Part shown: positions 2,457 through 21,434 of the stretch, one piece after another | How the letters are laid out: every line of letters starts with the position of its first letter | How positions within the stretch are numbered: position 1 is the stretch's first letter | Assembly: GCF_018100785.1 (NCBI RefSeq) | Contig: NZ_JAGJEC010000001.1 | Location: 1,302,001-1,366,000 of the forward strand | DNA: 64,000 nt | Source of the DNA: Maribacter sp. MMG018 | GTDB lineage: Bacteria > Bacteroidota > Bacteroidia > Flavobacteriales > Flavobacteriaceae | Direction: 5' to 3' | Notes under the pieces: model-generated | What the model was told of the DNA's origin: nothing | Seen by the model: the letters and a program-made list of their open reading frames with translations, nothing else | Databases searched by the model: none | Made by a program: the position numbers and the translations under genes

Positions 2457-2518
2457 AACTAAAATTTTAGTTTGAACTAATTTTTTAGTTACATTTGATT
2501 CGAACTAAAGAATTAGTT
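2457..2518 (+). promoter_or_regulatory. Three tandem 16-bp palindromic operators for the adjacent BlaI-type repressor
   Basis: Three copies of AACTAAnnnnTTAGTT lie in a row: AACTAAAATTTTAGTT (2457-2472), AACTAATTTTTTAGTT (2475-2490) and AACTAAAGAATTAGTT (2503-2518). The centres are 18 and 28 bp apart. BlaI/MecI/CopY repressors bind palindromic operators overlapping their own promoter, so autoregulation of the downstream operon is the natural reading. The third copy ends 7 bp before the ATG at 2526, so a full repressor load would cover the whole promoter. The half-site differs from the canonical TACAnnTGTA core, unlike the second BlaI operator set in this window. Confidence 0.8.
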
Positions 2519-2525
2519 GAAAGAA

Positions 2526-2888
2526 ATGAAGCAATTAACAAAAGCGGAAGAGGAGGTAATGCAAGTGTTGTGGCAGTTAGAAAAATCTAATGTTGCCGGT
2601 ATTATAGAAAAATTGCCGGAGCCTAAACCTGCGTACAATACGGTTTCTACTATAGTGAGAATACTGGAAAGCAAAGGTTTTGTCGATCACGAACAAGAGG
2701 GAAAGGGGTATTTATATTACCCTTTGTTAAAAAAGGCAGACTACAGCAATCAGAGTATAAACAAGTTGGTAGACGGTTATTTTCAAGGCTCGTTTAAAAG
2801 TATGGTTTCTTTTTTTATGAAAAAGAACGATATGAGTCTTTCTGAATTGGAATCGATTTTAAAGGACATTAAAAAAGAGGAATCATGA
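2526..2888 (+). CDS. BlaI/MecI/CopY-family transcriptional repressor
   Basis: About 120 residues, the usual family length. The N-terminal winged helix (about 1-75) has the family signature LTKAEEEVMQVLW and the recognition helix PAYNTVSTIVRILESKGFV; the C-terminal part is the dimerisation and cleavage region. I chose the ATG at 2526, because a possible TTG start at 2517 lies inside the third operator. It overlaps the M56 peptidase gene by 4 nt (ATGA), so the two are translationally coupled. By analogy with BlaI-BlaR1 and MecI-MecR1, the repressor would be inactivated by proteolysis when the membrane sensor is triggered. The ligand is unknown, and no beta-lactamase gene lies nearby. Confidence 0.93.
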   Translation: MKQLTKAEEEVMQVLWQLEKSNVAGIIEKLPEPKPAYNTVSTIVRILESKGFVDHEQEGKGYLYYPLLKKADYSNQSINKLVDGYFQGSFKSMVSFFMKKNDMSLSELESILKDIKKEES

Positions 2889-4534
2889 TACAGTATGTTC
2901 TAGAATGCGTAGCATTTCAACTTTTGTTTTTGATGATCTATGATTTCTTTCTAAAAAAGGAAACGTTCTTTCAATGGAACAGGGCATATTTAATAGTTAC
3001 CTATGCATTGTCGTTGTTGCTTCCATGGGTGAAAATAGAGGCATTTAGTACAGAGTTGCCAGTCACCTTTCAAGGCTACTCAGATTTCTTGTGGAGTTTA
3101 GAGCAGTCCCCGGTTACTGTAGGCACGACTATGGATAGCGACTTGCATGTTTCATGGCAACAAGTGTTTTTTTTAACGGGAATAGTGATAGCTACTTTCT
3201 GGTTTTTAATAAAACTATGGCGTCTATATCAATTAAGAAGAAAAGGCGAGGTAACGTATTTTAAACATTTTACCCAAATTGTATTGCCCCATAGTAATGA
3301 AGCTTTCTCTTTTTTCAGGTCCATTTTCTTGGGCGATGAGGTATTAAAAAAGGAATATAACGTAATTGTTTCCCACGAGTTGGTGCATATAAGACAACGG
3401 CATTCGTTAGATCTGTTGTTTTTCGAATTAATGCGCATTGTAGGCTGGTTTAATCCGTTGGTCTACATATATCAGCAGAGAATAACCGAGTTGCATGAGT
3501 TTATTGCAGACGCCCATGTGCCAAAAACCGAGCGTAAGGCGCATTATAATTTGTTGTTGTCACAAGTATTCGAATCCGGAAACATCTCCTTTGTCAATCA
3601 TTTTTTTAAAAATTCATTAATCAAAAAACGAATAGTCATGTTACAAAAATCGAAATCAAAAAAAGTATGGCAGTTAAAGTACTTACTTCTTGTGCCGTTG
3701 GTATTGGGTATGTTATTTTATACTTCATGTGAACAAAATGAAAAGGAAGGTCTTAAAAGTGAAGAGGAGGCCACGGCATTAAAAACGGAAATGGATGCGG
3801 TATCTTTTGCCGAAATAGACGAAGTGCCTGTTTTTCCCAATTGTGAGGATGCCGATGATAAAAAGGCCTGTTTTTCCACCATGTTACATCAACATATTTC
3901 TAAAAATTTCAGATATCCCGAGGATGCACAAGAATTAGGACTGCAAGGAAGGGTACATATTATGTTTACCATAGATGAGAATGGATCGGTGGGCGATATT
4001 AAAAAAAGAGGACCACATTTTTTGTTGGAAGATGAGGCAGAGCGCATTATTGGTAAATTGCCTCAGATGCAACCGGGCATAAACGATGGAACGCCCGTGA
4101 AAACGGTTTATTCTATCCCTATTTCCTTTAGGTTGGGCGATGGCATAGCTTCAAAGGTCGGTAATAAAAATTATTGGGTAGATAAGGAAGAGGTGCCTTT
4201 TTCTTATGTAGAAAATGTACCTGTCTTTCCGGGTTGTGAAGATAACAGCAACGCTAGGGCTTGTTTTAATATGATGATGCAAAGGCATATCAGTAAAAAT
4301 TTCAACTATCCTAAAGAGGCCATGGAAAAAGGTATACAGGGCAGGGTAAGTGTGATGTTTACGATTTCGGCAGACGGCAGTATTATTAATATCAGAAAAA
4401 GAGGGCCTCATGAGTTATTGGAGAACGAGGTAGAGCGCATTATCAAAAAACTACCTAAAATGACCCCGGGTAATTACGACGGAAAGAACGTGGACGTACC
4501 CTATTCCATTCCTGTAACATTCAAATTAACATAG
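2885..4534 (+). CDS. M56 (BlaR1-like) membrane metallopeptidase with two C-terminal TonB-type domains
   Basis: This 549-residue protein has N-terminal transmembrane helices (about 5-27, 33-50, 95-115), a cytoplasmic zinc peptidase core with HELVH at 164-168 and a third ligand in HEFIAD near 204-209, then a further helix (about 265-280). The periplasmic part is not a penicillin-binding sensor domain. Instead it has two tandem TonB C-terminal-like domains (about 314-416 and 445-548), each with the pattern VPVFPxCED, a second Cys ten residues later, HISKNF, then QGRV and MFTI. The gene overlaps blaI and precedes a TPR gene and a lipoprotein with a related module. It probably transduces an envelope signal to BlaI; whether the TonB domains contact receptors is inference. 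Confidence 0.9.
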   Translation: MIQYVLECVAFQLLFLMIYDFFLKKETFFQWNRAYLIVTYALSLLLPWVKIEAFSTELPVTFQGYSDFLWSLEQSPVTVGTTMDSDLHVSWQQVFFLTGIVIATFWFLIKLWRLYQLRRKGEVTYFKHFTQIVLPHSNEAFSFFRSIFLGDEVLKKEYNVIVSHELVHIRQRHSLDLLFFELMRIVGWFNPLVYIYQQRITELHEFIADAHVPKTERKAHYNLLLSQVFESGNISFVNHFFKNSLIKKRIVMLQKSKSKKVWQLKYLLLVPLVLGMLFYTSCEQNEKEGLKSEEEATALKTEMDAVSFAEIDEVPVFPNCEDADDKKACFSTMLHQHISKNFRYPEDAQELGLQGRVHIMFTIDENGSVGDIKKRGPHFLLEDEAERIIGKLPQMQPGINDGTPVKTVYSIPISFRLGDGIASKVGNKNYWVDKEEVPFSYVENVPVFPGCEDNSNARACFNMMMQRHISKNFNYPKEAMEKGIQGRVSVMFTISADGSIINIRKRGPHELLENEVERIIKKLPKMTPGNYDGKNVDVPYSIPVTFKLT

Positions 4535-4544
4535 TGTGCTTGTT

Positions 4545-5684
4545 ATGAGGGTTGTGAAGGCGGTTTTTATTTTACTATGCTTTTTTAAGGGCGAAGCCCA
4601 ATCCTCGGGTATCATGGCCGCAGATAGTCTTTATGCTACGGGTAACTATACTTTGGCGATCAACGAATATTCTAAAATAGGTGGTGCACGGGCATTATTA
4701 CAAATAGCAAGGTCGTATAGTGCCATTGGCAATTATGACAAGGCCATTGCCCAGTATGAAAGTGTTGTGGGCAAGGATCCCACGTTGCACATTGCAAGTT
4801 TTGAGTTGGGTAAGTTGTATATGAAGGGCCGGTTATTTGACGAGGCACGTAGGCTCTTTGCCAAACTTGTCAGTAATGGAAATGGCAACCCAGAGTTTTA
4901 TTATTATCTAGGGGAGGCGTATACGGAATCTGGGCAACCTGCCAGTAGTTTGGTCGCATACAAAAACGCGGTGCAATTAGATAGTACCCACTTGCGAAGC
5001 TTATTTCGATTGGGAAAGTACTTTTTGGTCAAAAAACAACCAGATCAAGCACTTTTATACATTAACAAAGGATTGGAGTTTTATAGTAGCGATGTGGGGT
5101 TTGTAAACTTAAAGGCCTTGGTCTATTTTAATGATAATAAGTACGAAGAGGCCATACCGTGGTTGGAAAAAGTGTTGGAGTTGGGGGAGCACAAAGAATA
5201 CGTTTATGAAAAACTGGCCTATAGCTATTATAAGAACTGGGAGTTCGGCAAGGCCAAGAAGACCTACAAAGAACTACTAAAATTAAACGACCAAAATTCG
5301 GATACTTATTTTGGTTTGGCGGAAGTGTATAGAAAAAATAAGGAATTGGATAGTGCCGAAGTTTTTATAAACAAGGCGATGATGATTAAAAGACCCATAT
5401 TCGCAAAGGGTTACAGTCTGTTGGCAGGTCTTTACAGAGAACGACAAGATCTAAAGGGCGCTTTAAAATATTATCGAATGGCCCATAAAGAAAACCCCGA
5501 AGAACCGTTGCTGTACTACAATATTTGTACGGTGTACGATCAATTGGGTACAGAACCGGAGAAAAAGCTGGAGTACTATCAGAGTTTTAAGACCCAATAT
5601 GGTACAGGGCAACCGTATCTTTCCGAAATAGTGGCGAAACGTATTTCTGAATTGAAGACAGAAATACATTTCACAGAAGAGTAA
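4545..5684 (+). CDS. Exported tetratricopeptide-repeat protein
   Basis: About 379 residues: a signal peptide (MRVVKAVFILLCFFKGEAQS) followed by roughly nine TPR units covering most of the protein, for example FYYYLGEAYTESGQ and AYSYYKNWEFGKAKKTYKEL. I prefer the ATG at 4545 over a GTG at 4536 because it gives a clean signal peptide. It follows the M56 gene by 10 nt, so it is probably in the same operon. TPR proteins act as scaffolds; here it may bridge the sensor to an envelope partner, but no specific function can be read from the sequence. Confidence 0.88.
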   Translation: MRVVKAVFILLCFFKGEAQSSGIMAADSLYATGNYTLAINEYSKIGGARALLQIARSYSAIGNYDKAIAQYESVVGKDPTLHIASFELGKLYMKGRLFDEARRLFAKLVSNGNGNPEFYYYLGEAYTESGQPASSLVAYKNAVQLDSTHLRSLFRLGKYFLVKKQPDQALLYINKGLEFYSSDVGFVNLKALVYFNDNKYEEAIPWLEKVLELGEHKEYVYEKLAYSYYKNWEFGKAKKTYKELLKLNDQNSDTYFGLAEVYRKNKELDSAEVFINKAMMIKRPIFAKGYSLLAGLYRERQDLKGALKYYRMAHKENPEEPLLYYNICTVYDQLGTEPEKKLEYYQSFKTQYGTGQPYLSEIVAKRISELKTEIHFTEE

Positions 5685-5725
5685 ACTCCCTAAAAAGTTG
5701 TAATTTCAACCATAGTTTTGGTGTA

Positions 5726-6202
5726 ATGCAGCGCATTTTATTTGTATTGGTTTGTTTGATAATGTCCTCTTGTAATCTCTTTGAATCCAAAGAGCAAAGG
5801 ACCCAAGATCTTGTGAATGAGGAACTACGGCAGATGGATTGGAACTCTGTCGATTCGTACCCTCTGTTTTTAGATTGTGATGAAACCGCCCTCAAGGAAG
5901 ATCAAAAAAGGTGTTTTGAGCAAAAATTGATCGGTCATTTCGAGGTTACCTTGAGTGAGTTTGAATTTACGGTCAATTCTGATGAAAACGCCATCGTAGA
6001 TGTTATCTTTGTCATAGATGCGGAAGGAAAAATCAGTGTGGTAGACATTCGTAAAGATGCTTCTATCATGAAACAGATGCCAGAGCTTGACGGTATTATT
6101 ATACAGAGCCTAAAAAACATTCCGCAGATTGCCCCTGCATTAAAGAGGGGAATTCCGGTAAGTACAAAGTTTAAGTTGCCGGTTCAATTAAACACAAAAT
6201 AG
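5726..6202 (+). CDS. Lipoprotein with a TonB_C-like domain
   Basis: This 158-residue protein has a lipoprotein signal (MQRILFVLVCLIMSSC, Cys at 16). The mature part (about 45-155) matches the module repeated in the M56 peptidase upstream: a first Cys (FLDCDE), a second Cys in KRCFEQKL, then IVDVIFVIDAEGKI and a closing hydrophobic strand. It is therefore the third copy of the same TonB C-terminal-like fold within 3.5 kb. It sits 41 nt after the TPR gene and 4 nt before ruvC. A role as a soluble partner or decoy for the sensor is inference. Confidence 0.8.
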   Translation: MQRILFVLVCLIMSSCNLFESKEQRTQDLVNEELRQMDWNSVDSYPLFLDCDETALKEDQKRCFEQKLIGHFEVTLSEFEFTVNSDENAIVDVIFVIDAEGKISVVDIRKDASIMKQMPELDGIIIQSLKNIPQIAPALKRGIPVSTKFKLPVQLNTK

Positions 6203-6206
6203 AAAT

Positions 6207-6761
6207 TTGAGTACCGAAAAAATTATATTGGGAATAGATCCCGGAACTACTATAATGGGGTTCGGATTGATAAAAGTAGTCGGTAAGAAGATGGAATTCG
6301 TTCAAATGAACGAGCTTTTATTGCAAAAATATAACGATCCCTATACCAAATTGAAGCTCATATTTGAACGGACCATTGAGTTGATAGATACCTATCATCC
6401 GGACGAGATAGCTATAGAGGCCCCTTTTTTTGGTAAAAATGTGCAATCGATGCTCAAATTAGGGCGTGCACAGGGGGTGGCCATGGCTGCGGGACTTTCT
6501 AGGGAAATACCTATCACCGAATATTTGCCAAAAAAAATAAAGATGGCCATTACGGGCAATGGTAATGCCAGTAAAGAACAAGTGGCAAAAATGTTACAAA
6601 GTGTCTTGGGGCTTAAAACACTGCCAAAAAATTTGGATAGTACCGATGGGCTGGCCGCTGCCGTATGTCATTTTTATAATGAAGGTAGAATAGATGTCGG
6701 AAAATCGTACTCCGGTTGGGCCTCTTTCGTGAAAAAGAACGAGGGAAGGATCAAAAAGTAA
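6207..6761 (+). CDS. ruvC: Crossover junction endodeoxyribonuclease RuvC
   Basis: RuvC resolves Holliday junctions by paired incisions, working with RuvAB. At 184 residues it has the family length, and the RNase H-like fold carries the four acidic catalytic residues: D11 (LGIDPGTT), E71 (IAIEAPFFGKN), D144 and D147 (LDSTDG). The start is TTG at 6207, which gives the conserved MSTEKIILGIDPG opening. hemW follows closely, a common flavobacterial order. Confidence 0.97.
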   Translation: MSTEKIILGIDPGTTIMGFGLIKVVGKKMEFVQMNELLLQKYNDPYTKLKLIFERTIELIDTYHPDEIAIEAPFFGKNVQSMLKLGRAQGVAMAAGLSREIPITEYLPKKIKMAITGNGNASKEQVAKMLQSVLGLKTLPKNLDSTDGLAAAVCHFYNEGRIDVGKSYSGWASFVKKNEGRIKK

Positions 6762-6772
6762 ACAAGACTTCA

Positions 6773-7906
6773 ATGAGCGGTATTTATATCCACATCCCGT
6801 TTTGTAAACAGGCATGTCATTATTGTGATTTTCATTTTTCTACCTCTATGGGTAAAAAAGAAGCCATGGTCGATGCCTTGTGCAGCGAAATGGAGCTTCG
6901 AAAAATGGAGTTCGAGGGCGAGGTGGTCGAAACCATATATTTTGGCGGAGGTACCCCATCCGTTTTAGAGCCGCAAGAGATACAGCGTTTAATAGCAACG
7001 GTGTATGCACATTATCAGGTATCCGAAAGCCCCGAAATTACCTTGGAGGCCAACCCCGATGACCTATCCGAAGAAAAATTGAATCAATTGGCGAATGGCC
7101 CCATTAATAGGTTGAGCATAGGGATACAGTCTTTTTTCGAGGAAGACCTACAACTTATGAATCGTTCCCACACCGCCGATCAGGCAGAAAAAGTGCTGGG
7201 CATGGCTGCACAAAAGTTTGATAATATCTCTATTGACCTGATCTATGGCATGCCGAACATGACCCAAGACCGTTGGCGCCATAATATAAAAAAAGCGCTG
7301 TCTTTCAACATAGGTCATATATCTAGCTATGCCCTAACGGTAGAACCAAAAACGGCCTTGGCTACATTCGTAAAAAAAGGATTGGTGAAGCCTGCCGATG
7401 ATGAGGTGGCGCAAGCGCATTTTAATGAGCTCTACGAGACACTTATCAAAGAGGGCTACGTGTGCTACGAAATTTCAAATTTTGGGAGGCCCGGCTATTT
7501 CTCAAAGAACAATTCTGCGTATTGGCAGCAAAAAAAATATATAGGAATAGGCCCTTCGGCACATTCTTTCGACGGCCGGCGTAGAGGGTGGAACATTAAT
7601 AACAATCCGAAATACATTAAGGCTATCGATAAGGGAGAACTGCCTATAGAAATCGAGGAGCTTACCGATAACGATAAATATAACGAGTACATTATGACCG
7701 GTCTTAGAACTATTTGGGGCGTGTCATTAAATAGGATAGCCGCTGATTTTGGACCAAGGTACGAGACCTATTTGCTTGCCCGATCAAAAAAATATATAAA
7801 AGAAAAGTTGCTAACTTTAGACCAGAATGTGTTGTTGACCACTAAAAAAGGGAAGTTTCTTGCAGATGGAATTGCAGCTGATTTGTTTATGGTTAACTTG
7901 TCATAA
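6773..7906 (+). CDS. hemW: HemW, radical SAM heme chaperone
   Basis: About 377 residues from the ATG at 6773. The radical SAM cluster motif is C11-x3-C15-x2-C18 (PFCKQACHYCDFHFS), followed by the SAM-binding GGGTPS, ANPD and a conserved RLSIGIQSF. An extra Cys follows the cluster motif in coproporphyrinogen dehydrogenase HemN; here the residue after CDF is His, as expected for HemW. HemW binds heme and delivers it to respiratory enzymes, although such genes are often misnamed coproporphyrinogen oxidase. A longer reading from 6716 would overlap ruvC and adds no conserved residues, so I reject it. Confidence 0.93.
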   Translation: MSGIYIHIPFCKQACHYCDFHFSTSMGKKEAMVDALCSEMELRKMEFEGEVVETIYFGGGTPSVLEPQEIQRLIATVYAHYQVSESPEITLEANPDDLSEEKLNQLANGPINRLSIGIQSFFEEDLQLMNRSHTADQAEKVLGMAAQKFDNISIDLIYGMPNMTQDRWRHNIKKALSFNIGHISSYALTVEPKTALATFVKKGLVKPADDEVAQAHFNELYETLIKEGYVCYEISNFGRPGYFSKNNSAYWQQKKYIGIGPSAHSFDGRRRGWNINNNPKYIKAIDKGELPIEIEELTDNDKYNEYIMTGLRTIWGVSLNRIAADFGPRYETYLLARSKKYIKEKLLTLDQNVLLTTKKGKFLADGIAADLFMVNLS

Positions 7907-7989
7907 AAAGTTCCGATACGCTTTTATGATACAGTATGGGGGTTTACAATAAATGTATTACATAAATTTTCTCTTAATATATTTCGAAC

Positions 7990-8736
7990 TTGAAGGCAAC
8001 GATAAAACATAGACAACAAGAATACAAGATAGACCTGAACAGGCCTTTGGATATTTCTATACCTCTGAAAGGAGATGTGTCCAACGTTAATGCTTGGTAT
8101 ATTGACCATCCAAAAATAGCCCCGCACACCGAACACGATTTTGTGGGGAGTGTAAAGGCTGGTGCATCCACTAATTTTAATGATATCTGGTTTAATCCGC
8201 ATGCCCATGGCACCCATACGGAATGTGTAGGGCATATTACCGAAGAGTTTTATTCGGTAAACCAAAACCTGAACAAATATTTCTTTTTGGCAGAAGTGAT
8301 TACCATAGCCCCCGGAAAAGTACAGGATGATTTTGTTATTTCTAAACATCAATTGGACAATGCCATAAAAACAACTGGATTGGAAGCCTTGGTCATAAGA
8401 ACATTGCCGAACACAACAGCAAAATTTTCCAAGCAATATTCGAATAGCAACCCTCCTTATTTATTAGAGGAAGCCGCTAGATATTTGGTGGACCTAGGGG
8501 TAAAGCATTTGTTGATAGACCTGCCTTCGGTAGATAAAGAAAATGATAACGGGGCCCTTTTGGCACACAAAGCATTTTGGGACACACAAGGTTCTCTAAG
8601 AATGGACGCTACCATAACCGAGTTTATTTATGTTGCCAACGATATTCCCGATGGTACGTACATTTTAAACCTGCAGATGGCATCTTTTGAGAACGATGCC
8701 AGCCCTAGTAGACCTGTTCTATATCAAACAAAATAA
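7990..8736 (+). CDS. Cyclase-family metal hydrolase (kynurenine formamidase-like)
   Basis: This 248-residue protein carries the metal-binding signature HAHGTHTECVGHI at about 71-83, a version of the HxGTHxDxPxH motif in which the Asp is Glu. The family includes kynurenine formamidases and isatin hydrolases and acts on small amide or lactam substrates in the cytoplasm. No signal peptide is present. The start is TTG at 7990 (MKATIKHRQQEYKIDL); there is no better ATG in frame. The gene lies 84 nt after hemW and 2 nt before the DUF4260 gene. No tryptophan-degradation genes are nearby, so the substrate is open. Confidence 0.85.
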   Translation: MKATIKHRQQEYKIDLNRPLDISIPLKGDVSNVNAWYIDHPKIAPHTEHDFVGSVKAGASTNFNDIWFNPHAHGTHTECVGHITEEFYSVNQNLNKYFFLAEVITIAPGKVQDDFVISKHQLDNAIKTTGLEALVIRTLPNTTAKFSKQYSNSNPPYLLEEAARYLVDLGVKHLLIDLPSVDKENDNGALLAHKAFWDTQGSLRMDATITEFIYVANDIPDGTYILNLQMASFENDASPSRPVLYQTK

Positions 8737-8738
8737 CA

Positions 8739-9098
8739 ATGAAGAATTTATTAAGACTCGAAGAACTGGCCATGTTCATATTGGGAATTTTTATGTTTGG
8801 CCTGCTAGGATACCAATGGTGGTTGTTTCCGGTATTGTTACTTACGCCGGATATAGGCATGCTAGGGTATTTGGTGAATAATAAATTAGGGGCAGGGCTT
8901 TATAACTTGTTCCATCATAAAGGGATTGCCATCCTTTTGTATTTTATTGGCATGTATTTTTCGATGCCAATTGTTCAATTAGCAGGGGTTATCTTATTTT
9001 CGCATTCCGCAATGGATAGAATATTCGGGTACGGCCTTAAATATGAAAAAGGTTTTAAATTCACGCATTTAGGAGAAATAGGTAAAAAAAATGGATAA
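8739..9098 (+). CDS. DUF4260 family membrane protein
   Basis: 119 residues with about four hydrophobic segments and the family features LLTPDIGMLGYL and HSAMDRIFGYGLKY. It matches the DUF4260 family of small integral membrane proteins of unknown function. It starts 2 nt after the cyclase gene and overlaps the DUF4230 gene by 8 nt, so the three are likely cotranscribed. Confidence 0.85.
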   Translation: MKNLLRLEELAMFILGIFMFGLLGYQWWLFPVLLLTPDIGMLGYLVNNKLGAGLYNLFHHKGIAILLYFIGMYFSMPIVQLAGVILFSHSAMDRIFGYGLKYEKGFKFTHLGEIGKKNG

Positions 9099-9714
9099 CG
9101 TTCTAGACGTTCTTTTGGGTCTTATTCTAGGAGGTATAATAGTCTACTGGCTATTTTCCTTTTTTAGAAAAAAGCAAAACAAAGAAATTACGACGCACCA
9201 GTCTACGGTGCTTCTTGAAAAAATTAAAAGTGTTTGTAAGCTGATTTCGGTAGAAGGTGATTTTGCGGAAATTTATAAATATGAAAATACCAAAGAACGG
9301 TTTTTAAGTCTGGTCATAAGTAAAAAGAAAGCCTTGGTGGTCATTAAGGCCAAAGCACAAATTGGATATGACCTTAACAAGATTTTGATGCACGCCGACG
9401 ATGGTAAGAAAAAAATAGTTCTTGCTAATTTTCCGGAGCCGGAAGTGCTTTCCATAGAACCTGAACTAGAATTTTATGATGTAAAGAACGGCTTTTTCAA
9501 TAGCTTTACGCCCGACGATCTTACCAGTCTTAACCAAGAGGCGAAAAAGCATATACGCGAAAAAATACCTGAGAGCGGCCTTATGGATACGGCAAGAAAA
9601 GAGGCCCTGCAGACCGTATTGCTGATAGAGAAAATAGTGGAGACCATAGGGTGGAAATTGGATTATTCGGCACTTGAAATTACCGACGAACAAAAGAAAT
9701 TATTGGAAAATTAA
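9091..9714 (+). CDS. DUF4230 domain protein, membrane-anchored
   Basis: 207 residues. One N-terminal transmembrane helix (about 5-25, VLLGLILGGIIVYWLFSFF) is followed by a soluble domain with the DUF4230 pattern (KLISVEGDFAEIYKYE, then KKALVVIKAKAQIGYDLNKI). Function is unknown for the family. It overlaps the preceding gene by 8 nt. Confidence 0.85.
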   Translation: MDNVLDVLLGLILGGIIVYWLFSFFRKKQNKEITTHQSTVLLEKIKSVCKLISVEGDFAEIYKYENTKERFLSLVISKKKALVVIKAKAQIGYDLNKILMHADDGKKKIVLANFPEPEVLSIEPELEFYDVKNGFFNSFTPDDLTSLNQEAKKHIREKIPESGLMDTARKEALQTVLLIEKIVETIGWKLDYSALEITDEQKKLLEN

Positions 9715-9724
9715 ATTATTGAAA

Positions 9725-10117: not shown

Positions 10118-10125
10118 ATTTTATA

Positions 10126-10482: not shown

Positions 10483-10532
10483 TGCCGTTTTATTCACGCT
10501 TCTTAAGTTCATGTTTAATTCGTCAGTGCTGT

Positions 10533-12305
10533 ATGCAAGACCCGGAAAGTTTTTATAAAGATCAAATTACAAAACATAAGGAAAGCTTTGTAAAAGTAAA
10601 GGGGCAATTGTTCGCTTCTAGTATGCTAAGGCTATCTGTGTTTGTATTGGCAATTGTGGCACTCTACTTTTTTAGTTCCAATACTAAAATAATGGTCGCT
10701 ATTATTGTTGGTACGATAGCACTGTTTCTATACCTTGTTTCCAGACATTCTGACCTACAGTACAAAAGGGACAAGCTAAAGCAACTGATGCTAATTAATG
10801 AGACCGAGCTAAAGGTGTTGAACAGAGATTTTCATCATTTGCCAAAAGGGGAGGCGTTTAAAGATGATCAACATTTTTACAGTCAAGATATAGATCTTTT
10901 TGGGCAGGGATCTTTTTATCAGTACATAAATAGAACGGCCCTGCCACAAGGTAGTGAAGTGTTGGCCGGTCTATTAAAGGCGAACTCTATTGCAGATATC
11001 ACAAAAAAGCAAAACGGTATTAGAGAGCTGGGCGATATGCCCCAATGGATACAAGATTTTTCGGCCACCGCTTCTTTGGCAGCTACCGAAACCACTACCA
11101 ATACCATAACCGATTGGTTAAGGTCTTATAAGTCTTTTGTTCCCAAGGTGATGAATGTTGTCCCATGGTTGTTTTCAGGTATTAGTGTAGCTCTTTTTGC
11201 GGCCTTCTTTTTAGGGTTTGTAAAAGAGTCCATATTAATTTATTGGTTGATGTTCGGGTTGTTGGTTACCGGTTTTTTTACTAAAAAAATAACCAAACTG
11301 GCTTCCGACGCAGGTAAGGTTCAATCTACATTTCAGCAATACAATCAGTTGTTAAGAATGATAGAGGATAAAGAATTTACCTCTGACCTTCTTAAGGAGA
11401 AAAAATCGCAGATCTTAAGTGATGGCAAAAAAACGTCCCAGGCCTTAAAAGAGTTTTCGAAGCTGTTGGGGAGTTTGGACCAAAACAACAATATTGTTTA
11501 TCTCATATTTGGTAACGGCCTTTTTTTAAGGGGCCTCTATACCTGTCTTAAAATAGAAAATTGGATAGCGAAGCATGGGGCCTTTGTAGAAAATTGGTTC
11601 GAGGTTATTGCCTTTTTTGATGCCTACGGTAGTCTCGGTAACTTTGTTTTTAATCATCCGGAGTATTCGTTTCCTGAGATTACGGAAGAAAATATCACTA
11701 TAAAATCGGTAGGGGCGGGGCACCCCTTACTAGACCCCAAAAAGAGTGTTCTAAACGATTTTGAAATTGATAACGAAGAGTTTTTAATTATTACCGGGGC
11801 TAATATGGCCGGAAAAAGTACTTTTTTAAGAACGGTATCCTTGCAGATAGTTATGGCCAATATGGGGTTGCCGGTCTGTGCAAAACAAATGGTGTACAGT
11901 CCCATTAAATTAATTACCAGTATGCGCACCACAGACTCTTTAACAGATGATGAGTCTTACTTTTTTTCTGAGTTGAAGCGATTAAAGTTTGTGGTGGAAC
12001 AGATACAGCACGATCGATATTTTATTGTTCTCGATGAAATTTTAAAAGGTACCAATAGCATCGATAAGGCAAAAGGCTCCAGAAAGTTTGTAGAACGTTT
12101 GGTAGGGTCTAGGTCTACGGGTATTATTGCCACTCACGACCTTAGTCTTTGTGAAGTGTCCAAAGAGTTTCCACAGGTTAAAAACCATTATTTTGATGCC
12201 GAGATAATTGATGATGAGCTACACTTCGACTATAAGTTCAAAGAAGGTGTTTGTCAAAATATGAATGCATCCTTTTTATTGAAGAAAATGGGGATTATTG
12301 AATAA
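10533..12305 (+). CDS. MutS-family ATPase with transmembrane segments
   Basis: About 590 residues from the ATG at 10533 (MQDPESFYKDQ). Two pairs of hydrophobic helices (about 30-70 and 200-250) place it in the membrane. The C-terminal half is a MutS-type ATPase with Walker A GANMAGKST (about residue 421), Walker B IVLDEILKGTN and a signature TDDESYFFSELKRL, ending with IIATHDLSL. The mismatch-recognition domain of true MutS is absent, so this is not the mismatch sensor. A GTG start at 10482 is possible but adds an unconserved segment. It is the largest gene of this cluster and lies after the YjbR gene. Confidence 0.88.
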   Translation: MQDPESFYKDQITKHKESFVKVKGQLFASSMLRLSVFVLAIVALYFFSSNTKIMVAIIVGTIALFLYLVSRHSDLQYKRDKLKQLMLINETELKVLNRDFHHLPKGEAFKDDQHFYSQDIDLFGQGSFYQYINRTALPQGSEVLAGLLKANSIADITKKQNGIRELGDMPQWIQDFSATASLAATETTTNTITDWLRSYKSFVPKVMNVVPWLFSGISVALFAAFFLGFVKESILIYWLMFGLLVTGFFTKKITKLASDAGKVQSTFQQYNQLLRMIEDKEFTSDLLKEKKSQILSDGKKTSQALKEFSKLLGSLDQNNNIVYLIFGNGLFLRGLYTCLKIENWIAKHGAFVENWFEVIAFFDAYGSLGNFVFNHPEYSFPEITEENITIKSVGAGHPLLDPKKSVLNDFEIDNEEFLIITGANMAGKSTFLRTVSLQIVMANMGLPVCAKQMVYSPIKLITSMRTTDSLTDDESYFFSELKRLKFVVEQIQHDRYFIVLDEILKGTNSIDKAKGSRKFVERLVGSRSTGIIATHDLSLCEVSKEFPQVKNHYFDAEIIDDELHFDYKFKEGVCQNMNASFLLKKMGIIE

Positions 12306-12326
12306 CGCCCCTATTTATACCTATAC

Positions 12327-13328
12327 ATGGATTCGTTAACACAAATAGTTCTTGGAGCTGCAGTCGGTGAAGTTGCCCTTGGCAAGAAAGTGGGCAATAA
12401 GGCTATGCTGTATGGTGCCATTGCAGGTACTATACCCGATCTAGATGTGTTGTCGAAGTATTTTTTAGATACTGTGAGTGCCACCGAGTGGCACAGGGGG
12501 GTGACCCACTCTATTTTTTTTTCGGTATTGTTCGCTCCCGTTTTTGGTTGGCTCGTTTGGAAACTGAATCCTAAAGGAAAGGCCTCTTGGCAAGATTGGT
12601 CCTTACTTATGTTCTTGGGGCTCTTTACCCATCCGATATTGGATGCCTTTACCACTTGGGGCACCCAGCTATTTTGGCCTTTTAAGACAAGGCTTGCTTT
12701 TCAAAGTATTTTTGTGATCGATCCCTTGTACACAATTCCTTTTATCATTTTCTTGGTTTTAGCAATGATGCAAGAACGAACGGCGATAAAAAGAAGAAGA
12801 TATGTGTATCTCGGGCTTGTGATTAGTAGTGCTTATTTGGTATTGACATTGGTTTTAAAGGGAGTCGCTTACCAAAAATTTGAAAACGAACTTCAAGAGC
12901 AAGGTATAGCCTATAATGAGATAAATACAAGGCCTGCTCCTTTTAATACTATTCTTTGGATGGCCAATATCGAAAAGGAAGATGTCTATCTCATGGGCAA
13001 CTATTCCTTTTTTGATTCGCAACCGGTCGTATTTAGAGAGTATCCCAAAAATCATGAACTATTGGGCGATTGGGCCACCAACGATAAAATTAAAAGACTG
13101 ATTCAGATTACAGGCGGTTGGTATACCATTTCAGAAAAGGATGGAGACCTTTATTTTAACGATCTGCGATTTGGATTGATAAGTCTGGATGGTGATGAAA
13201 ACCAATTTGCGTTCAGTTACCGTCTTACGCCCAATGGAGACGATCTTTATGTTCATGAAACCCCTAAGTTAAAAAGAGATGCAAAGCGGTTAATGGCCTC
13301 TCTTTGGAAGCGTATATGGGGCAACTGA
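12327..13328 (+). CDS. YdjM-like membrane-bound metal-dependent hydrolase
   Basis: 333 residues. The N-terminus (MDSLTQIVLGAAVGEVALGKKVGNKAMLYG) and the HRGVTHSIFF motif match the YdjM / LexA-binding, inner-membrane-associated hydrolase family. Four to five hydrophobic helices lie in the first 180 residues, followed by a soluble C-terminal region. Conserved His and Asp residues (IPDLDVL, HRGVTHS, THPILDAFTTWG) probably bind metal. It ends the plus-strand run and converges on the DUF4407 gene 16 nt away. Confidence 0.85.
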   Translation: MDSLTQIVLGAAVGEVALGKKVGNKAMLYGAIAGTIPDLDVLSKYFLDTVSATEWHRGVTHSIFFSVLFAPVFGWLVWKLNPKGKASWQDWSLLMFLGLFTHPILDAFTTWGTQLFWPFKTRLAFQSIFVIDPLYTIPFIIFLVLAMMQERTAIKRRRYVYLGLVISSAYLVLTLVLKGVAYQKFENELQEQGIAYNEINTRPAPFNTILWMANIEKEDVYLMGNYSFFDSQPVVFREYPKNHELLGDWATNDKIKRLIQITGGWYTISEKDGDLYFNDLRFGLISLDGDENQFAFSYRLTPNGDDLYVHETPKLKRDAKRLMASLWKRIWGN

Positions 13329-13344
13329 TCTTTAGATGATCTTG

Positions 13345-14448
13345 CTACTTTAATCCTTTTACCTGTATCTCGTGAAAAGTGTCGGCTTGCAGGCGTAACA
13401 ATTCTTCTGCCTTTTTCTTTTTGTACCCGTATAGTTCTTCTTCTCCCTTTAGGTCTTCATAGATTTTTTGGTTGATGTCGCCATCGGTGGTAACGATTAG
13501 CTTGCGCTGTGCTACTTTTTGTGCTACCCAAGAGGATAAGATACTTTCTTGCTCTTCCAGTTTTATGTCATATTCTCCTTTCGGAGCCAAAAGCTTGGCA
13601 ATAATGGGCGATGTTTCGATGGCCAAGAACAACAGGAATATAAAAAATGAGGGAAGCCATGGCAACTCTTCCAATGCCGTAATTCTGGCCATAAGACCAT
13701 CAAACCCATCAATAATGGGTTGAGAGTTTTTTACCACTGCTGCATATTCGGTATCCAATGCCGCAATTTGACTTTCGATAACCGCAATTTTTTCTGCATT
13801 GGCCGTTTTTAAGGCCTGTAGTTCAGAAAGTGCGGCATCGTGTTTTTCGCGTTTTTCTTTATAAACGGGGCCTTTGCCCAAGAGTTTTGTGCCGGCCGTG
13901 CCTTCGGCCTCGTTAATATAAATATCGTACAAGGCATTGGTTTCCGCCTCTTTAGTTGCAATTTCTGATTTTAAGGAGGCAATGTCTTGGTTTAGCTTTT
14001 CTATTTGTGGCGTGTATTGCTGCGCCAATTGCTCTTTATTGGCCAAAGTGAGTTCGTTTTTTTGTTCCAGCAAGACTTGGTTTATCTCTTTTTCAAATAT
14101 TTTCATTTCCAAAGGTTTGGAAATTACGATAGCTATAATGACGGCTAACGCAATACGTGGCGTTGCCTGTAAAAACTCTTGTTTAAAATTGTTTCGTTTT
14201 TTAATGGTGGAGACGATGAACCTATCCAGATTAAAAATCAACAACCCCCAAATGGCTCCAAAAAAAATAGCTGTGTAGACGTTGTCGAATACAGTATATA
14301 GGGCGTAGCTGCTGGCAATAAAAGCCATTACAGCAGTAAAAAATACCGTGGCGCCAATACCGGCATATTTATTCTGTTCTCCTTTTGAACATGTTTTTAA
14401 TATTTCTGAATCGGCCCCTGAACAAAGGATAAAAAAGTTCTGTAACAT
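13345..14448 (-). CDS. DUF4407 membrane protein with a coiled coil
   Basis: About 367 residues from the ATG at 14448 (MLQNFFILCSGADSEIL). Three hydrophobic helices lie in the first 130 residues, then a long Glu/Lys/Ala-rich coiled coil (about 140-250), then another helix (LPSFFIFLLFLAIETSPII) and a charged tail. This is the DUF4407 architecture; function is unknown. A longer reading from 14517 adds 23 residues that overlap the upstream terminator, so I reject it. Confidence 0.87.
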   Translation of the reverse strand: MLQNFFILCSGADSEILKTCSKGEQNKYAGIGATVFFTAVMAFIASSYALYTVFDNVYTAIFFGAIWGLLIFNLDRFIVSTIKKRNNFKQEFLQATPRIALAVIIAIVISKPLEMKIFEKEINQVLLEQKNELTLANKEQLAQQYTPQIEKLNQDIASLKSEIATKEAETNALYDIYINEAEGTAGTKLLGKGPVYKEKREKHDAALSELQALKTANAEKIAVIESQIAALDTEYAAVVKNSQPIIDGFDGLMARITALEELPWLPSFFIFLLFLAIETSPIIAKLLAPKGEYDIKLEEQESILSSWVAQKVAQRKLIVTTDGDINQKIYEDLKGEEELYGYKKKKAEELLRLQADTFHEIQVKGLK

Positions 14449-14515
14449 ATTGATTTGTTTTTTGATTGATGATGCTATGTAATGGGTGAACGTAACTATT
14501 CGGTTTTTGGTACGC

Positions 14516-14540
14516 AAAAAGCCCTCGAAAAGAGGGCTTT
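14516..14540 (-). terminator. Intrinsic terminator of the second BlaI/M56 operon
   Basis: On the minus strand AAAGCCCTC pairs with GAGGGCTTT across a 5-nt loop and runs into TTTTT. It lies 22 nt after the stop of the M56 gene and insulates the DUF4407 gene. Confidence 0.8.
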
Positions 14541-14561
14541 AACATTAGTTTGACGTTATTT

Positions 14562-17336
14562 CTATTCTATTGTTACAGGGTCTTTTGTGATTTTTATCAC
14601 CGTATTACCATTTTTGCCCCGAGATTCTATGTTCAACTCCTTGTTGTTTTTTATTAGATCAATGGCCTTATCAGAGGAGACTTCTTTGTCTTCGTATAAA
14701 AACGTTGCCCCTTTTTTTGCCGCATCTATTACAAAATCTAAGGGCGAAATTGGGGTAGGTGGAGACGGAGGAGGTGGAATTTTTATGTTGTCTTTTTCCT
14801 TATAAATTCTGACTTCTGGTTGTTTGTTAGTATAGGGCAATGTTTCTATAGTAATGTCCTTTTCGTTATTTACGACGCTAAAGCCTTCTTCTGTAGTTAT
14901 TTTTTTTCCATCTAGATAAAATTGGGCGTCTTGTTTTGCAAGGGACTTCAAGTTTTTCATCAGATTGGGAGACCTGTCAGATTCGATAAAGTTCGAATTA
15001 TGAATATAGACTTGTGTGTTTTCTACAGCAATAATGTCTTTATTGTTTATGATCTTTTCTATTTCTGCATCGGTATAATCGACGGAGTTCGGGGTGTCTG
15101 GCGCTTTTGGGGCAGGTGGTGGCTCGGGGAAATCAGGAAATGGGGCGGCGTCTTTCTTTTGTTTATCCGACATTAGGTTGTAGATATACCTTAACCGGTC
15201 TACATCCGATTTTAGAATGCGAATATTGCCACCTTTGGCGATCATGCTGTTGTACTTATTTGCCAGGTCGTTGTATTCCTTGATTTGTTTTGTGGTGGGT
15301 GGTTCTTGAAATCCGACTTTTTTTCCATAAATATTGACTGTAGCCGCACCGAATTCAGAGACAATTTGGTCTATTTTCTGCAAAACATCTTTTGGGGCAT
15401 CATTGTCGCTGGTAATAAGTACTCTTAGCGATTTTTGTCTTTCTTCGTATGTTTTTGGGGTGTTCATACTTTTTAGATGTTCCTTTAATTCGTCTACTTG
15501 TAATAACTGCGAATCAATTAGGAGAAGCCCATCTTTATGTACCTTAATGTCAATTTCTTTGATGGTGCCTTGAATGTTACATTCAGGAAAAGGTTGAGCA
15601 TTCTTTTTTTGGCTTGCCGACATTTTACGGTAGATTTTTTCCAGAATTTTTAAATCCTTTAAAGGAATAATCCGTTTTTCAATAGAAACAGCATTGTATT
15701 TTTTTGCCAGCCTGTTATAGGTTTTAATTGCTCGGTTATCTAGATTGTCATTGATGTCACCAGAGGTTGTATAGATTGCAAAATCGGAGTTGTCATAATC
15801 TTCTAGCGGTGACATTGATTTTATACTACTTCTAGTGATATAACCATTCAAATTAGAAGCTATAATATTTGTATTGTCGTTTATGGCTATAATATCATTT
15901 GGAGAGTTTAATTTTAACCACCCTGTTGAACTGACCAAATAGAGAGAGCCATCTACTTCAATAACTATATCTGAGGTCTTTCTTTTTGTATTCTCAAGTT
16001 TCTGATTAAAGGTCAACTCTTTTTCGATATGTATTTTGTTCTTGTATATTGAAGAATAAGATAGGTCACCGTTATCTGTAAATAACTTTGAAAACTCTGG
16101 GGATTCGGATGTTAATTTTTGAAGTCCTAAGTAGAAAGTTGATGTAATTACCCCATTAAGATTGCCCCAATGTTCTTGCTGTACCATTGGTTTGTACCCA
16201 TTTTTTTCAACGAAGAGGTTAAAATAGATCTCATCTGTTGTGTGGTCATCAATATGTAACCTATAATACCCTTTACGGTCCGTTTTGAAAAGTAACCTTC
16301 CGTTAGAATCTTTTATTTCAACACCTTCTAAAGGATTCAAAGTTTCAGAGTCTAAAACTAATCCTGCTATTCTAATGGTTCTGACAGCACTTTTATCAGA
16401 GTTTTCAAGGGTTAGTGCGTTTTCGATATGTGAATTAGAATCAATATATTCTATTGATTTTTCACTAAAATTGGCCAATAGGAAGCCCATTAAGGGTAAG
16501 AGCAGTAGGCTTCTTAACACAACTCCTTTTTTTGATGTTCTTTTTTTCATGATGATAAATCGTTTTTTGATTGATGAATAATTAATGGCACTTGAAATGC
16601 CGGTCGACTGATGTTTTATATAGCTATCGTGTGATAAGTACGATAGTAAAGTGTTCTGGTACTGTAAGAGGTTTTTGCTTTTATTGAGCACGGCCGTATC
16701 GGCCAAAAACTCGTGGTTTAGTTTAGCAGCGTGCTTGTATAGATATATGAACGGGTTGAACCAAAGTAGCACCTGTAATAATTCTAGGGCCAATACATCT
16801 ATACTATGTTTTTGTTTTGCATGGGTTTCTTCGTGAAGCAAAACAGTTTCCGGAATTTCGTTGTTGTCAAATTTCTTCTTGTTCAAGAAGATATAGTTAA
16901 AAAAGGTATGTGGTGGCAATTGCTCTTGTAAGAGCACTTGAATGATGAAGTTTTTCCTCAATTTCGGATTCTTACGTATGCGATGCCATATTTGAGAAAG
17001 ATGCCGGGCAAAACGAAGTCCAAATCCGAATACACCTAGGCAGTACAATACCCATAGTAGTATCTGATAATTAAATGTTGCTGGTTCGGGGGCCACGGGT
17101 GGGTCTGTGGCAGTATTGTCAAAAGAACCGTCTACGGGTAGTTGAGGGGATATTTCAACGGGTGCCATTTCTATATATTCCGTAAAAACAAGCGAAGGTA
17201 TTATAAACGATGCTGCCAATGCTCCCAGAAGATAGAACCTCTTAAAAACGTGCATGGTTTCTTTTTCCAATAAGAGCTTATAGAAAATCCATAAAATGGC
17301 CATGCAGGCCGTAGATTTTAAAAGAAAGAGTGCCAT
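14562..17336 (-). CDS. M56 (BlaR1-like) membrane metallopeptidase with a long repeat-containing periplasmic tail
   Basis: 924 residues, far longer than BlaR1. The N-terminal membrane peptidase has HEETH at 168-172 and the third ligand in NHEFLAD (about 207-213); a transmembrane helix follows near 273-290. The periplasmic tail starts with a carboxypeptidase-regulatory-like domain (about 318-400). A repeated unit, YNxLAxKYN then IYxxMSxxQKKxAxPFP, occurs at about 540-585 and 688-735. Between the two copies, about 594-672, is a stretch that resembles an ExbD/TolR periplasmic fold (IDIKVHKDGLLLID, LRVLITSDNDAPKDVLQKID, ATVNIYG). Two related short units with KKGATFLYEDKE-type strands end the protein. 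It starts 1 nt after blaI. The signal sensed is unknown. Confidence 0.87.
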   Translation of the reverse strand: MALFLLKSTACMAILWIFYKLLLEKETMHVFKRFYLLGALAASFIIPSLVFTEYIEMAPVEISPQLPVDGSFDNTATDPPVAPEPATFNYQILLWVLYCLGVFGFGLRFARHLSQIWHRIRKNPKLRKNFIIQVLLQEQLPPHTFFNYIFLNKKKFDNNEIPETVLLHEETHAKQKHSIDVLALELLQVLLWFNPFIYLYKHAAKLNHEFLADTAVLNKSKNLLQYQNTLLSYLSHDSYIKHQSTGISSAINYSSIKKRFIIMKKRTSKKGVVLRSLLLLPLMGFLLANFSEKSIEYIDSNSHIENALTLENSDKSAVRTIRIAGLVLDSETLNPLEGVEIKDSNGRLLFKTDRKGYYRLHIDDHTTDEIYFNLFVEKNGYKPMVQQEHWGNLNGVITSTFYLGLQKLTSESPEFSKLFTDNGDLSYSSIYKNKIHIEKELTFNQKLENTKRKTSDIVIEVDGSLYLVSSTGWLKLNSPNDIIAINDNTNIIASNLNGYITRSSIKSMSPLEDYDNSDFAIYTTSGDINDNLDNRAIKTYNRLAKKYNAVSIEKRIIPLKDLKILEKIYRKMSASQKKNAQPFPECNIQGTIKEIDIKVHKDGLLLIDSQLLQVDELKEHLKSMNTPKTYEERQKSLRVLITSDNDAPKDVLQKIDQIVSEFGAATVNIYGKKVGFQEPPTTKQIKEYNDLANKYNSMIAKGGNIRILKSDVDRLRYIYNLMSDKQKKDAAPFPDFPEPPPAPKAPDTPNSVDYTDAEIEKIINNKDIIAVENTQVYIHNSNFIESDRSPNLMKNLKSLAKQDAQFYLDGKKITTEEGFSVVNNEKDITIETLPYTNKQPEVRIYKEKDNIKIPPPPSPPTPISPLDFVIDAAKKGATFLYEDKEVSSDKAIDLIKNNKELNIESRGKNGNTVIKITKDPVTIE

Positions 17337-17337
17337 G

Positions 17338-17703
17338 TTATCGTTTTTTTAGTTCGGTGTCTATAAGCTTTCTTAGCTCTTCGAGCTCTTGTTTGCTGAG
17401 GTCGGTTTCCTGTGTAAAAAAAGAGGCAAATTGCCCGGGACTGTTATTGAAAAAGTTTTTTATGAGTCCGTTTACGTGTTTAGAAAAATAATCTTTCTTT
17501 TTTACCAAAGGGTAATATTCCCTGCTTCTACCATAACTTTTATACGCAACAAAACCCTTGTCGGCCATTCTTTTTAAAAGAGTGGCAACCGTTGTGGTAG
17601 CAGGTTTTGGGTCTGGGTAGGCATCTAAAAGGTCTTTCATGAACGCCTTTTTAAGTTTCCAGACAATGTTCATTAATTCTTCTTCCGATTTTGATAGCTG
17701 CAT
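17338..17703 (-). CDS. BlaI/MecI/CopY-family transcriptional repressor (second copy)
   Basis: 121 residues. The winged-helix region has LSKSEEELMNIVWKLKKAFM and the recognition segment PATTTVATLLKRMADKGFV, followed by the reader-specific wing GRSREYYPLVKKKDYF. It is a paralogue of the repressor at 2526 but differs in several recognition-helix residues (YNTVSTIVRIL against TTTVATLLKRM). Three palindromes immediately upstream of the ATG carry a different half-site from the first system. The M56 gene follows after 1 nt, so the two form one operon. Confidence 0.93.
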   Translation of the reverse strand: MQLSKSEEELMNIVWKLKKAFMKDLLDAYPDPKPATTTVATLLKRMADKGFVAYKSYGRSREYYPLVKKKDYFSKHVNGLIKNFFNNSPGQFASFFTQETDLSKQELEELRKLIDTELKKR

Positions 17704-17704
17704 C

Positions 17705-17768
17705 TTCTACGTTTTTAGAATTTGTTCTACAAACATAGAACAAATATTTTAATTCTACAAATGTAGAG
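17705..17768 (-). promoter_or_regulatory. Three tandem palindromic operators for the second BlaI repressor
   Basis: TTCTACGTTTTTAGAA (17705-17720), TTCTACAAACATAGAA (17725-17740) and TTCTACAAATGTAGAG (17753-17768) lie directly before blaI, with centres 20 and 28 bp apart. The outermost copy contains TACAAATGTA, an exact TACAnnTGTA core as in bla, mec and cop operators. The copy number and the 28-bp interval match the first BlaI system, but the half-site is TTCTAC rather than AACTAA. Confidence 0.8.
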
Positions 17769-18501: not shown

Positions 18502-18525
18502 TACTTCTTTTAAAAGGTGTGAATG

Positions 18526-18566
18526 AAAAAGCGAACTCTTTGTCATGGACAAAAGAGTTCGCTTTT
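18526..18566. terminator. Bidirectional terminator between the PhnA-like and M20 genes
   Basis: AAAGCGAACTCTTT and AAAGAGTTCGCTTT form a strong stem flanked by A-runs on one side and T-runs on the other. It can serve both convergent genes. Confidence 0.8.
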
Positions 18567-18594
18567 CTTTGTTTGGTGAAAAAAGTATTTGGTC

Positions 18595-21406: not shown

Positions 21407-21434
21407 TGTATTTTATTTCTTAGGTATATTGTGA

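What the first reader, a model, noticed from the sequence alone, without database searches (positions are those of the whole stretch)
2457..17768. Two paralogous BlaI/M56 systems with parallel triple operators but different half-sites
Seen: blaI at 2526 and blaI at 17703 (minus) are each preceded by three 16-bp palindromes. Set 1 is AACTAAnnnnTTAGTT (2457, 2475, 2503); set 2 is TTCTACnnnnnTAGAA-like (17705, 17725, 17753), whose outer copy has the canonical TACAnnTGTA core. Each set has one 28-bp centre interval and one of 18-20 bp, but in opposite order relative to the gene start. Known: BlaI/MecI bind palindromes of this kind near their own promoters. Inferred: the two repressors have diverged in recognition sequence so the two signalling lines do not cross-talk.
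Basis: partly seen in the sequence, partly recalled or inferred. Interest (0 to 1): 0.7.

Follow-up and report, generated by a model that had tools for sequence, protein, structure and literature searches.

The report
Paralogous BlaI repressors with separate operators
This marine bacterium has three related on/off switches (a DNA-binding repressor plus a membrane protease), and each seems to have its own DNA address with its own spacing, conserved among relatives, so that at least two of the switches should not interfere with each other.

Summary
Set 1 (2457, 2475, 2503; AACTAAN4TTAGTT) and set 2 (17705, 17725, 17753; TTCTAC-type) are tandem arrays before two BlaI/M56 operons of a Maribacter-like genome. 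In 293 distinct Bacteroidota BlaI genes operator type follows recognition-helix class: class A (...RIL) has AACTAA within 200 bp in 46/50, class C (TT.AT..KRM) has TTCTAC in 112/122. The exceptions are operons with something in front of blaI. No A promoter has a C site (0/50); no C promoter has two A sites (0/122). In 24 genomes holding both classes, no promoter carries the other's array. Spacing is class-specific too: A 18 bp plus a variable 25-34; C 28 then 20. Single sites are not above control counts; the array is the signal, found mostly at blaI operons. One experimental precedent was found (Clostridium thermocellum). Binding, and selection for insulation, are untested.

The parts
2457..2472 (.). 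operator A1, AACTAAAATTTTAGTT
   Evidence: class A array
2475..2490 (.). operator A2, AACTAATTTTTTAGTT, centre 18 bp from A1 (the usual class A interval)
2490..2497 (+). TACATTTG, match to the Bacteroidota -7 box TAnnTTTG (consensus recalled), just after A2; same phase in 25 of 36 anchored class A promoters
2503..2518 (.). operator A3, AACTAAAGAATTAGTT, next to the start codon
2526..2888 (+). blaI1, class A repressor (helix NTVSTIVRILES); PF03965 1.4e-31
2885..4534 (+). M56 membrane protease (HELVH) with two TonB_C stretches, 549 aa, overlaps blaI1 by 4 bases
4545..5684 (+). TPR protein, likely third gene of the operon
5726..6202 (+). 158-aa lipoprotein-like ORF, no Pfam match; resembles the periplasmic TonB-like part of the M56 protein (26%, 2.8e-11)
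14562..17336 (-). M56 membrane protease of the second system (HEETH), 924 aa, long C-terminal part without TonB_C
17338..17703 (-). blaI2, class C repressor (helix TTVATLLKRMAD); PF03965 8.8e-30
17705..17720 (.). operator C3, TTCTACGTTTTTAGAA (gene-proximal)
17725..17740 (.). operator C2, TTCTACAAACATAGAA
17730..17737 (-). TATGTTTG -7-like box lying inside operator C2; same phase in 85 of 91 anchored class C promoters
17753..17768 (.). operator C1 (gene-distal), TTCTACAAATGTAGAG, with TACAnnTGTA core

Best explanation
These are two (of three in the genome) self-repressing BlaI/M56 modules. Dimers of each BlaI sit on a tandem array of 16-bp palindromes laid across the operon's own promoter and block it. 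A signal sensed by the outer part of the M56 membrane protease leads to loss of the repressor, and the operon is switched on. The DNA address is class-specific in two ways, the half-site (AACTAA, AACTAT or TTCTAC around a common CTA) and the spacing (18 plus a variable 25-34; 20+20; 28+20). Lines A and C therefore should not read each other's promoters. Shown here: arrays, class-specific sequence and spacing, promoter-box phase, M56 partners. Inferred from the known family: binding, repression, protease-driven induction. Inferred with less support: that separation of the lines is what was selected.
For: A class-blind palindrome search over 293 distinct BlaI upstream regions returns AACTAA (87), AACTAT (34) and TTCTAC (31) as the top half-sites, and these sort by recognition helix. 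Own-type site within 200 bp (up to 2 mismatches): A 46/50, B 27/31, C 112/122, against 4%, 5% and 2% in shuffles; C-type site in A 0/50 and in B 0/31; two or more A-type sites in C 0/122. Paired arrays score 21 or more in 188 of 292 regions and in none of the shuffles. The 18 regions without a near site (4 A, 4 B, 10 C): in A and C an own-class site stands before a leading gene (leading gene unclear in one, L113); in B all are the second blaI of a tandem. 24 of 125 genomes hold A and C: A promoter with 2 or more A sites 20/24, with any C site 0/24; C promoter with 2 or more C sites 23/24, with 2 or more A sites 0/24. Promoter-like box in fixed phase: 25/36 (A), 16/25 (B), 85/91 (C). In 118 order genomes, by my count, 39 of 42 A/B arrays and 13 of 17 C arrays lie at blaI operons (positions; contexts). 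HExxH in the ORF after blaI: A 48/49, B 31/32, C 116/116 (one more B gene without such an ORF). A MORN-like leading gene carries AACTAA in a class A operon and TTCTAC in class C operons.
Against: No binding or expression data. 104 of 292 regions fall below the array threshold, partly because classes D-F use other half-sites. Exact single A sites, 1-5 per genus genome, are not above the reversed control (0-8). Operator type tracks deep repressor clades; on a 93-row tree only 2 well-supported independent pairs exist for helix residue 9 against base -3, too few for a test, and Ala at helix residue 4 does not by itself go with T at -7 (no difference in 1.5 of 2 pairs on average). So which residues read which base is unproven, and selection for insulation is not separable from old divergence. 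A and B half-sites differ by one base. 10 of 122 C promoters carry one A-like site (8%, against 6% in shuffles). MecI and BlaI of S. aureus are interchangeable on DNA (PMC3305447, passages), so paralogues need not be separated.
Confidence: 0.8

Rival explanations
1. The operators differ only because the repressor clades are old; there was no selection for insulation, and real cross-talk (mainly A with B, which share AACTA) occurs in the cell.
For: The -7 base changes once on the tree. At up to 2 mismatches B promoters score for AACTAA in 26/31 and A promoters for AACTAT in 46/50. S. aureus MecI and BlaI are interchangeable (PMC3305447, passages).
Against: No A promoter has a C site and no C promoter an A array in the 24 genomes that hold both. 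Spacing also differs by class.
Confidence: 0.45
2. The palindromes are read by some other regulator or act as AT-rich promoter structure, and BlaI binds elsewhere.
For: No binding data were found for these proteins. The palindromes are AT-rich and overlap the promoter-like box.
Against: The arrays lie mostly at blaI operons, and their sequence follows the BlaI class even inside one genome. BlaI paralogues of C. thermocellum bind similar half-sites, GTCTAT and GACTAT, in tandem inverted repeats at their own operons (PMC8457756, passages and section 25).
Confidence: 0.05
3. Each system is a larger stress regulon with many targets, and the blaI operon is just one of them.
For: Class A sites precede ChaN/Tiki-like lipoprotein genes away from blaI in G278 (exact pair, 18 bp apart; G278 also has a class A blaI on another contig) and in G383 (one exact site; its BlaI set was not looked at). 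A class B-type array precedes a lipoprotein-like ORF in G019. A second A pair precedes a TPR gene next to blaI in G019.
Against: In the window's genome the arrays occur only at blaI operons. Only 1 of the 14 ChaN-like homologues found has an A site with up to 1 mismatch, and 139 of 149 family genomes, the window's own included, have no such homologue.
Confidence: 0.15

Closest known systems
BlaI/BlaR1 and MecI/MecR1 of Staphylococcus and Bacillus licheniformis
   Same: Repressor family (PF03965; MecI 1okr at 5.5e-15 and 2.6e-12), M56 partner with HExxH, palindromic operators at the own promoter; B. licheniformis also has three operators OP1-3 (PMC3305447, passages).
   Different: No penicillin-binding sensor domain and no beta-lactamase among the proteins of the two window operons; operators AACTAA/TTCTAC instead of the ATTACA..TGTA consensus (PMC5341023, figure legend); these paralogues have different operators, whereas staphylococcal MecI and BlaI are interchangeable.
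BlaI_0696 and BlaI_1845 of Clostridium thermocellum (PMC8457756, passages and section 25)
   Same: Two paralogues in one genome with related but different half-sites (GTCTAT, GACTAT; in my register a T/A switch at -7 around CTA), tandem inverted repeats in fixed order, small autoregulatory regulons.
   Different: Two palindromes per promoter, not three; GTCTAT repeats are given as five nucleotides apart, not four; one species; no family-wide class or spacing rule and no TonB-type sensors in the parts I read.
CopY/CopR copper repressors (PMC9345489, passages)
   Same: Same repressor superfamily; consensus RNYKACANNYGTMRNY, distal and proximal operator at copY.
   Different: Copper-exporter repressors (metal-responsive); the CopY equivalog cut-off is not met here (56.7 and 55.1 bits against 121.95).

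Membership tests
BlaI/MecI repressor family | Penicillinase_R domain over the cut-off | tested here: met
   109.6 and 103.9 bits against cut-off 22.6
BlaI/MecI repressor family | Paired membrane protease M56 with HExxH | tested here: met
   PF05569 49.1 and 61.1 bits against 31; HELVH and HEETH in the translations
BlaI/MecI repressor family | Palindromic operators overlapping the own promoter | tested here: met
   as sequence only; the -7 box consensus is recalled and promoter use is not shown
BlaI/MecI repressor family | TACAnnTGTA operator core | tested here: inconclusive
   Present in the outer set-2 site only; set 1 lacks it
BlaR1/MecR1 beta-lactam resistance system | Penicillin-binding sensor domain on the M56 protein | tested here: not met
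   Pfam finds TonB_C in one and only a weak CarbopepD_reg_2 in the other, no transpeptidase domain; NCBIfam BlaR1 models far under cut-off
BlaR1/MecR1 beta-lactam resistance system | Control of a beta-lactamase or PBP2a gene | tested here: inconclusive
   None among the operon proteins scanned; targets elsewhere in the genome were not searched for it
BlaI/MecI repressor family | Cleavage at N101-F102 | tested here: inconclusive
   In the alignments to MecI the pair N-F faces F-F in both window proteins; cleavage itself not testable
BlaI/MecI repressor family | Specific binding of the repressor to its operator | not testable with these tools
   needs EMSA or footprinting
CopY/TcrY | equivalog score over cut-off | tested here: not met
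   56.7 and 55.1 against 121.95

The most novel reading that the evidence does not exclude
Bacteroidota run at least three parallel BlaI/M56 lines whose outer sensor parts come from TonB-linked outer-membrane transport (TonB_C in class A, receptor plug in class B). Each line is kept apart by its own operator code of half-site plus spacing, and envelope lipoprotein 'payload' genes are moved between lines by acquiring the matching array. That would make a natural set of orthogonal repressors for watching the outer membrane.
Probability: 0.25. Interest if true: 0.75.

Novelty: new variant of a known kind. Interest (0 to 1): 0.52.

Why it matters
How paralogous repressors in one cell keep their signals apart is a general question. 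Here one repressor family gives a natural series with three half-site types, three spacing rules and a short recognition helix, seen in 125 genomes and 80 named contigs. It makes the reading code testable with a few proteins and oligonucleotides. It also points to what BlaI/M56 systems may do outside beta-lactam resistance, since some sensors carry TonB-system domains and several of the occasional extra targets are lipoprotein-like genes.

Tried and rejected
Rejected: using single operators to define a regulon. Single sites are at or near control counts; of the twelve 1-mismatch set-1 sites of the own genome one is the third blaI's, the others are scattered, three of them inside genes. In G009 the only exact set-1 site is not at a blaI gene; the two blaI genes found there are class B and C. 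Rejected as chance: the perfect TTCTACAGAAGTAGAA at 35676, inside a large sensor-kinase-like gene; C-type pair hits in G081, G082, G108 (783635) and G119, since the reversed control also hits 2 genomes; the A/B-type hit in G087 between mutY-like and rng-like genes (names from memory), which reads as one large inverted repeat.

Tried without a decision: the residue-level code. Helix residue 9 (I46 of BlaI1) is the best protein column for base -3 (1.22 bits), but for -8 the best column, and for -7 most of the tied best columns, lie outside the helix, and too few independent changes exist. A regular expression for TonB-like and plug-like tails failed as a counter (plug-like 0 in every class although Pfam finds a plug in a class B protein; TonB-like in 11 of 24 complete class A tails and 4 of 7 class E tails), so sensor classes rest on few Pfam scans: TonB_C in 3 of 3 class A proteins (window, L362, L366), plug in L044 (1.3e-12) and, under Pfam's cut-off, in L360 (2.3e-4), both class B, neither in 3 of 3 class C proteins (window, L129, L144) (classes checked). 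The sigma-70 and terminator scan found nothing at set 1. Structure prediction was not run; similarity to MecI by sequence was taken as enough.

Dropped rows: 316 HMM hits became 293 by leaving out hits that start beyond HMM position 8 and exact duplicates; 311 without removing duplicates. The genome draws overlap, their match lists are cut, and only part of the listed matches was fetched, by my choice. In L113 the leading gene is unclear, an antisense ORF being listed there; L131 shows it clearly.
Full report
What is in the window. The window lies in contig C1 of a 4.13-Mb genome; the nearest named relative of BlaI2 is from Maribacter thermophilus, 98% identical. Two BlaI/M56 operons point towards each other, their start codons 15 kb apart. 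Operon 1 (+): blaI1 2526-2888, an M56 protease with HELVH and two TonB_C stretches 2885-4534, a TPR protein, and a small lipoprotein-like ORF. Operon 2 (-): blaI2 17338-17703 and a 924-aa M56 protease with HEETH 14562-17336. Both repressors match MecI over nearly their whole length (5.5e-15 and 2.6e-12). A third blaI/M56 pair lies at C1:1813246.

The operators. The exact set-1 pattern occurs nowhere else in the genome, but with one mismatch it is no commoner than its reversed control. Set 2 is convincing only as an array. The third blaI has AACTATTTTTTTAGTT and AACTATAAAAATAGTT 20 bp apart and a degenerate third site.

Test across relatives. A search for palindromes that knew nothing of classes gave AACTAA, AACTAT and TTCTAC as the three commonest half-sites. 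They sort by recognition helix: RIL (class A), RNL (B) and TT.AT..KRM (C). Own-type sites within 200 bp: 46/50, 27/31, 112/122; C-type sites at A or B promoters: 0/50 and 0/31; two or more A-type sites at C promoters: 0/122. Other classes use further half-sites, TACTA-type for the TT.MT helices and TACGAA for QIM.

Spacing. Class A: 18 bp (a few 17 or 20), then a variable 25-34; class B: 20 and 20; class C: 28 (some 27) then 20 towards the gene. The box TAnnTTTG (consensus recalled) has a usual place in each array: right after site 2 in A (25/36), after site 3 in B (16/25), inside site 2 in C (85/91). The geometry fits promoter occlusion, which is an inference.

The exceptions fit the rule. 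18 genes (4 A, 4 B, 10 C) lack a site within 200 bp. The four A cases have one extra gene before blaI, and class A sites stand in front of that gene. The four B cases are the second blaI of tandem blaI-M56-blaI-M56 units, with arrays before the first blaI. Of the ten C cases, eight have a MORN-like leading gene (Pfam MORN_2 matches in the two of them scanned stay under its cut-off), one (L131) another lipoprotein-like gene, and in L113 the leader is unclear; a class C site with up to 2 mismatches stands upstream in all ten. A MORN-like leader occurs both in a class A operon with AACTAA sites (L279) and in class C operons with TTCTAC sites (L223; 35% identity, 2.5e-31). So the array follows the repressor class, not the neighbouring gene.

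Within one genome. 24 of 125 genomes hold both A and C. The A promoter has two or more A sites in 20/24 (three of the other four have a leading gene, G013 has one site) and any C site in 0/24; the C promoter has two or more C sites in 23/24 and two or more A sites in 0/24. The genomes are related, so these are not independent trials. 16 genomes hold A and B, whose half-sites differ by one base.

Regulon. In 118 order genomes the A/B pair pattern occurs in 33 genomes, the reversed control in 1. I count 42 arrays, 39 of them at blaI operons (positions compared; G073 with a leading gene). The other three: G087 (rejected), a TPR gene next to blaI in G019, and in G019 an array before a lipoprotein-like ORF cut by the contig end. 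The C pair pattern occurs in 16 genomes, the control in 2; I count 17 arrays, 13 at blaI operons, the other four rejected as chance. These patterns are strict and miss many blaI promoters. In the genus, exact single A sites number 1-5 in each of 36 genomes, the reversed control 0-8; their place, not their number, is informative. An exact class A pair 18 bp apart precedes a ChaN/Tiki-like lipoprotein gene in G278 (L348; Pfam match under its cut-off) on a contig other than that of its class A blaI; the protein is 58% identical to the leading gene of the blaI1 operon of G006. A homologue in G383 has one exact site. Only 1 of the 14 homologues found has such a site, so this is at most occasional recruitment.

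Sensors. TonB_C was found in the three class A M56 proteins scanned (window, L362, L366), a TonB-receptor plug domain in L044 (class B, 1.3e-12) and, under the cut-off, in L360 (class B), and neither in the three class C proteins scanned (window, L129, L144). The lines may therefore sense different things; a link to TonB-dependent transport is a guess from the domains.

What is not shown. Trees built without the helix columns (44 rows; 93 rows) put each operator type in deep clades. On them base -7 changes once, -3 eight and eleven times. Tests with independent pairs had at most 2 well-supported pairs and decide nothing; Ala at helix residue 4 alone does not predict T at -7. So the causal residues, and whether insulation was selected, remain open.

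Known work. Ten searches of the paper library (BlaI with M56 and Bacteroidetes; MecI, operator and recognition helix; Flavobacterium and BlaR1; CopY and paralog; licheniformis; Bacteroides and regulon; 'BlaI family'; palindromic and Mycobacterium; MecI and Arg51; M56, TonB, BlaR1, plug) listed no paper whose title, abstract start or passages seen describe BlaI operators in Bacteroidota; subscription papers are mostly not held. The closest is the C. thermocellum DAP-seq study (PMC8457756; passages and section 25): two BlaI paralogues with GTCTAT and GACTAT half-sites in ordered tandem repeats and tiny autoregulatory regulons, with EMSA support. S. aureus MecI and BlaI, by contrast, are interchangeable on DNA, and B. 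licheniformis BlaI uses three operators (PMC3305447, passages). A Riemerella transcriptome reports a BlaI-family gene up-regulated in an LPS mutant (PMC5294843, passages).

Verdict. A real and conserved feature that I found little described: a new variant of the known BlaI/M56 kind, with class-specific operator sequence and spacing.

Noticed in passing
G000:C1:1813246-1813584 (L003, L044): Third blaI/M56 pair of the genome; its M56 protein ends in a TonB-receptor plug-like domain (1.3e-12).
   Followed up: yes
L348:425-1660 with sites at 1683 and 1701; L045:191-1429; L401:1141-2763: ChaN/Tiki-like lipoprotein genes with class A operators: once away from blaI behind an exact 18-bp pair, once as leader of the blaI1 operon, once with a single exact site.
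   Followed up: partly
L279:1891-2310, L223:1875-2324, L238:1136-1561: MORN-like lipoprotein leaders shared between class A and class C operons, each with the operators of its own class.
   Followed up: partly
L390:1-270: Class B-type array at a contig end before a cut lipoprotein-like ORF; looks like DUF4369 from memory, not scanned.
   Followed up: no
window 17923-19986: A 192-aa ORF resembling PhnA and a dipeptidase-like gene (names from memory) lie next to blaI2; similar neighbours stand beside class C blaI in some relatives, e.g. L113 and L131 (both) and L226, L238 (the latter gene).
   Followed up: no
window 20522-24872: A PorP/SprF-like membrane protein and a large surface protein with BspA-like repeats and a gliding-type C-terminal domain (names from memory, not scanned).
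   Followed up: no
window 164-2389: TonB-dependent receptor with plug domain directly upstream of the blaI1 operon, same strand; whether it is linked to the TonB_C sensor is unknown.
   Followed up: no
window 33673-36513: Hybrid two-component-like protein (kinase, receiver, AraC-like end by reading, not scanned) holding a chance perfect set-2-type palindrome at 35676.
   Followed up: no
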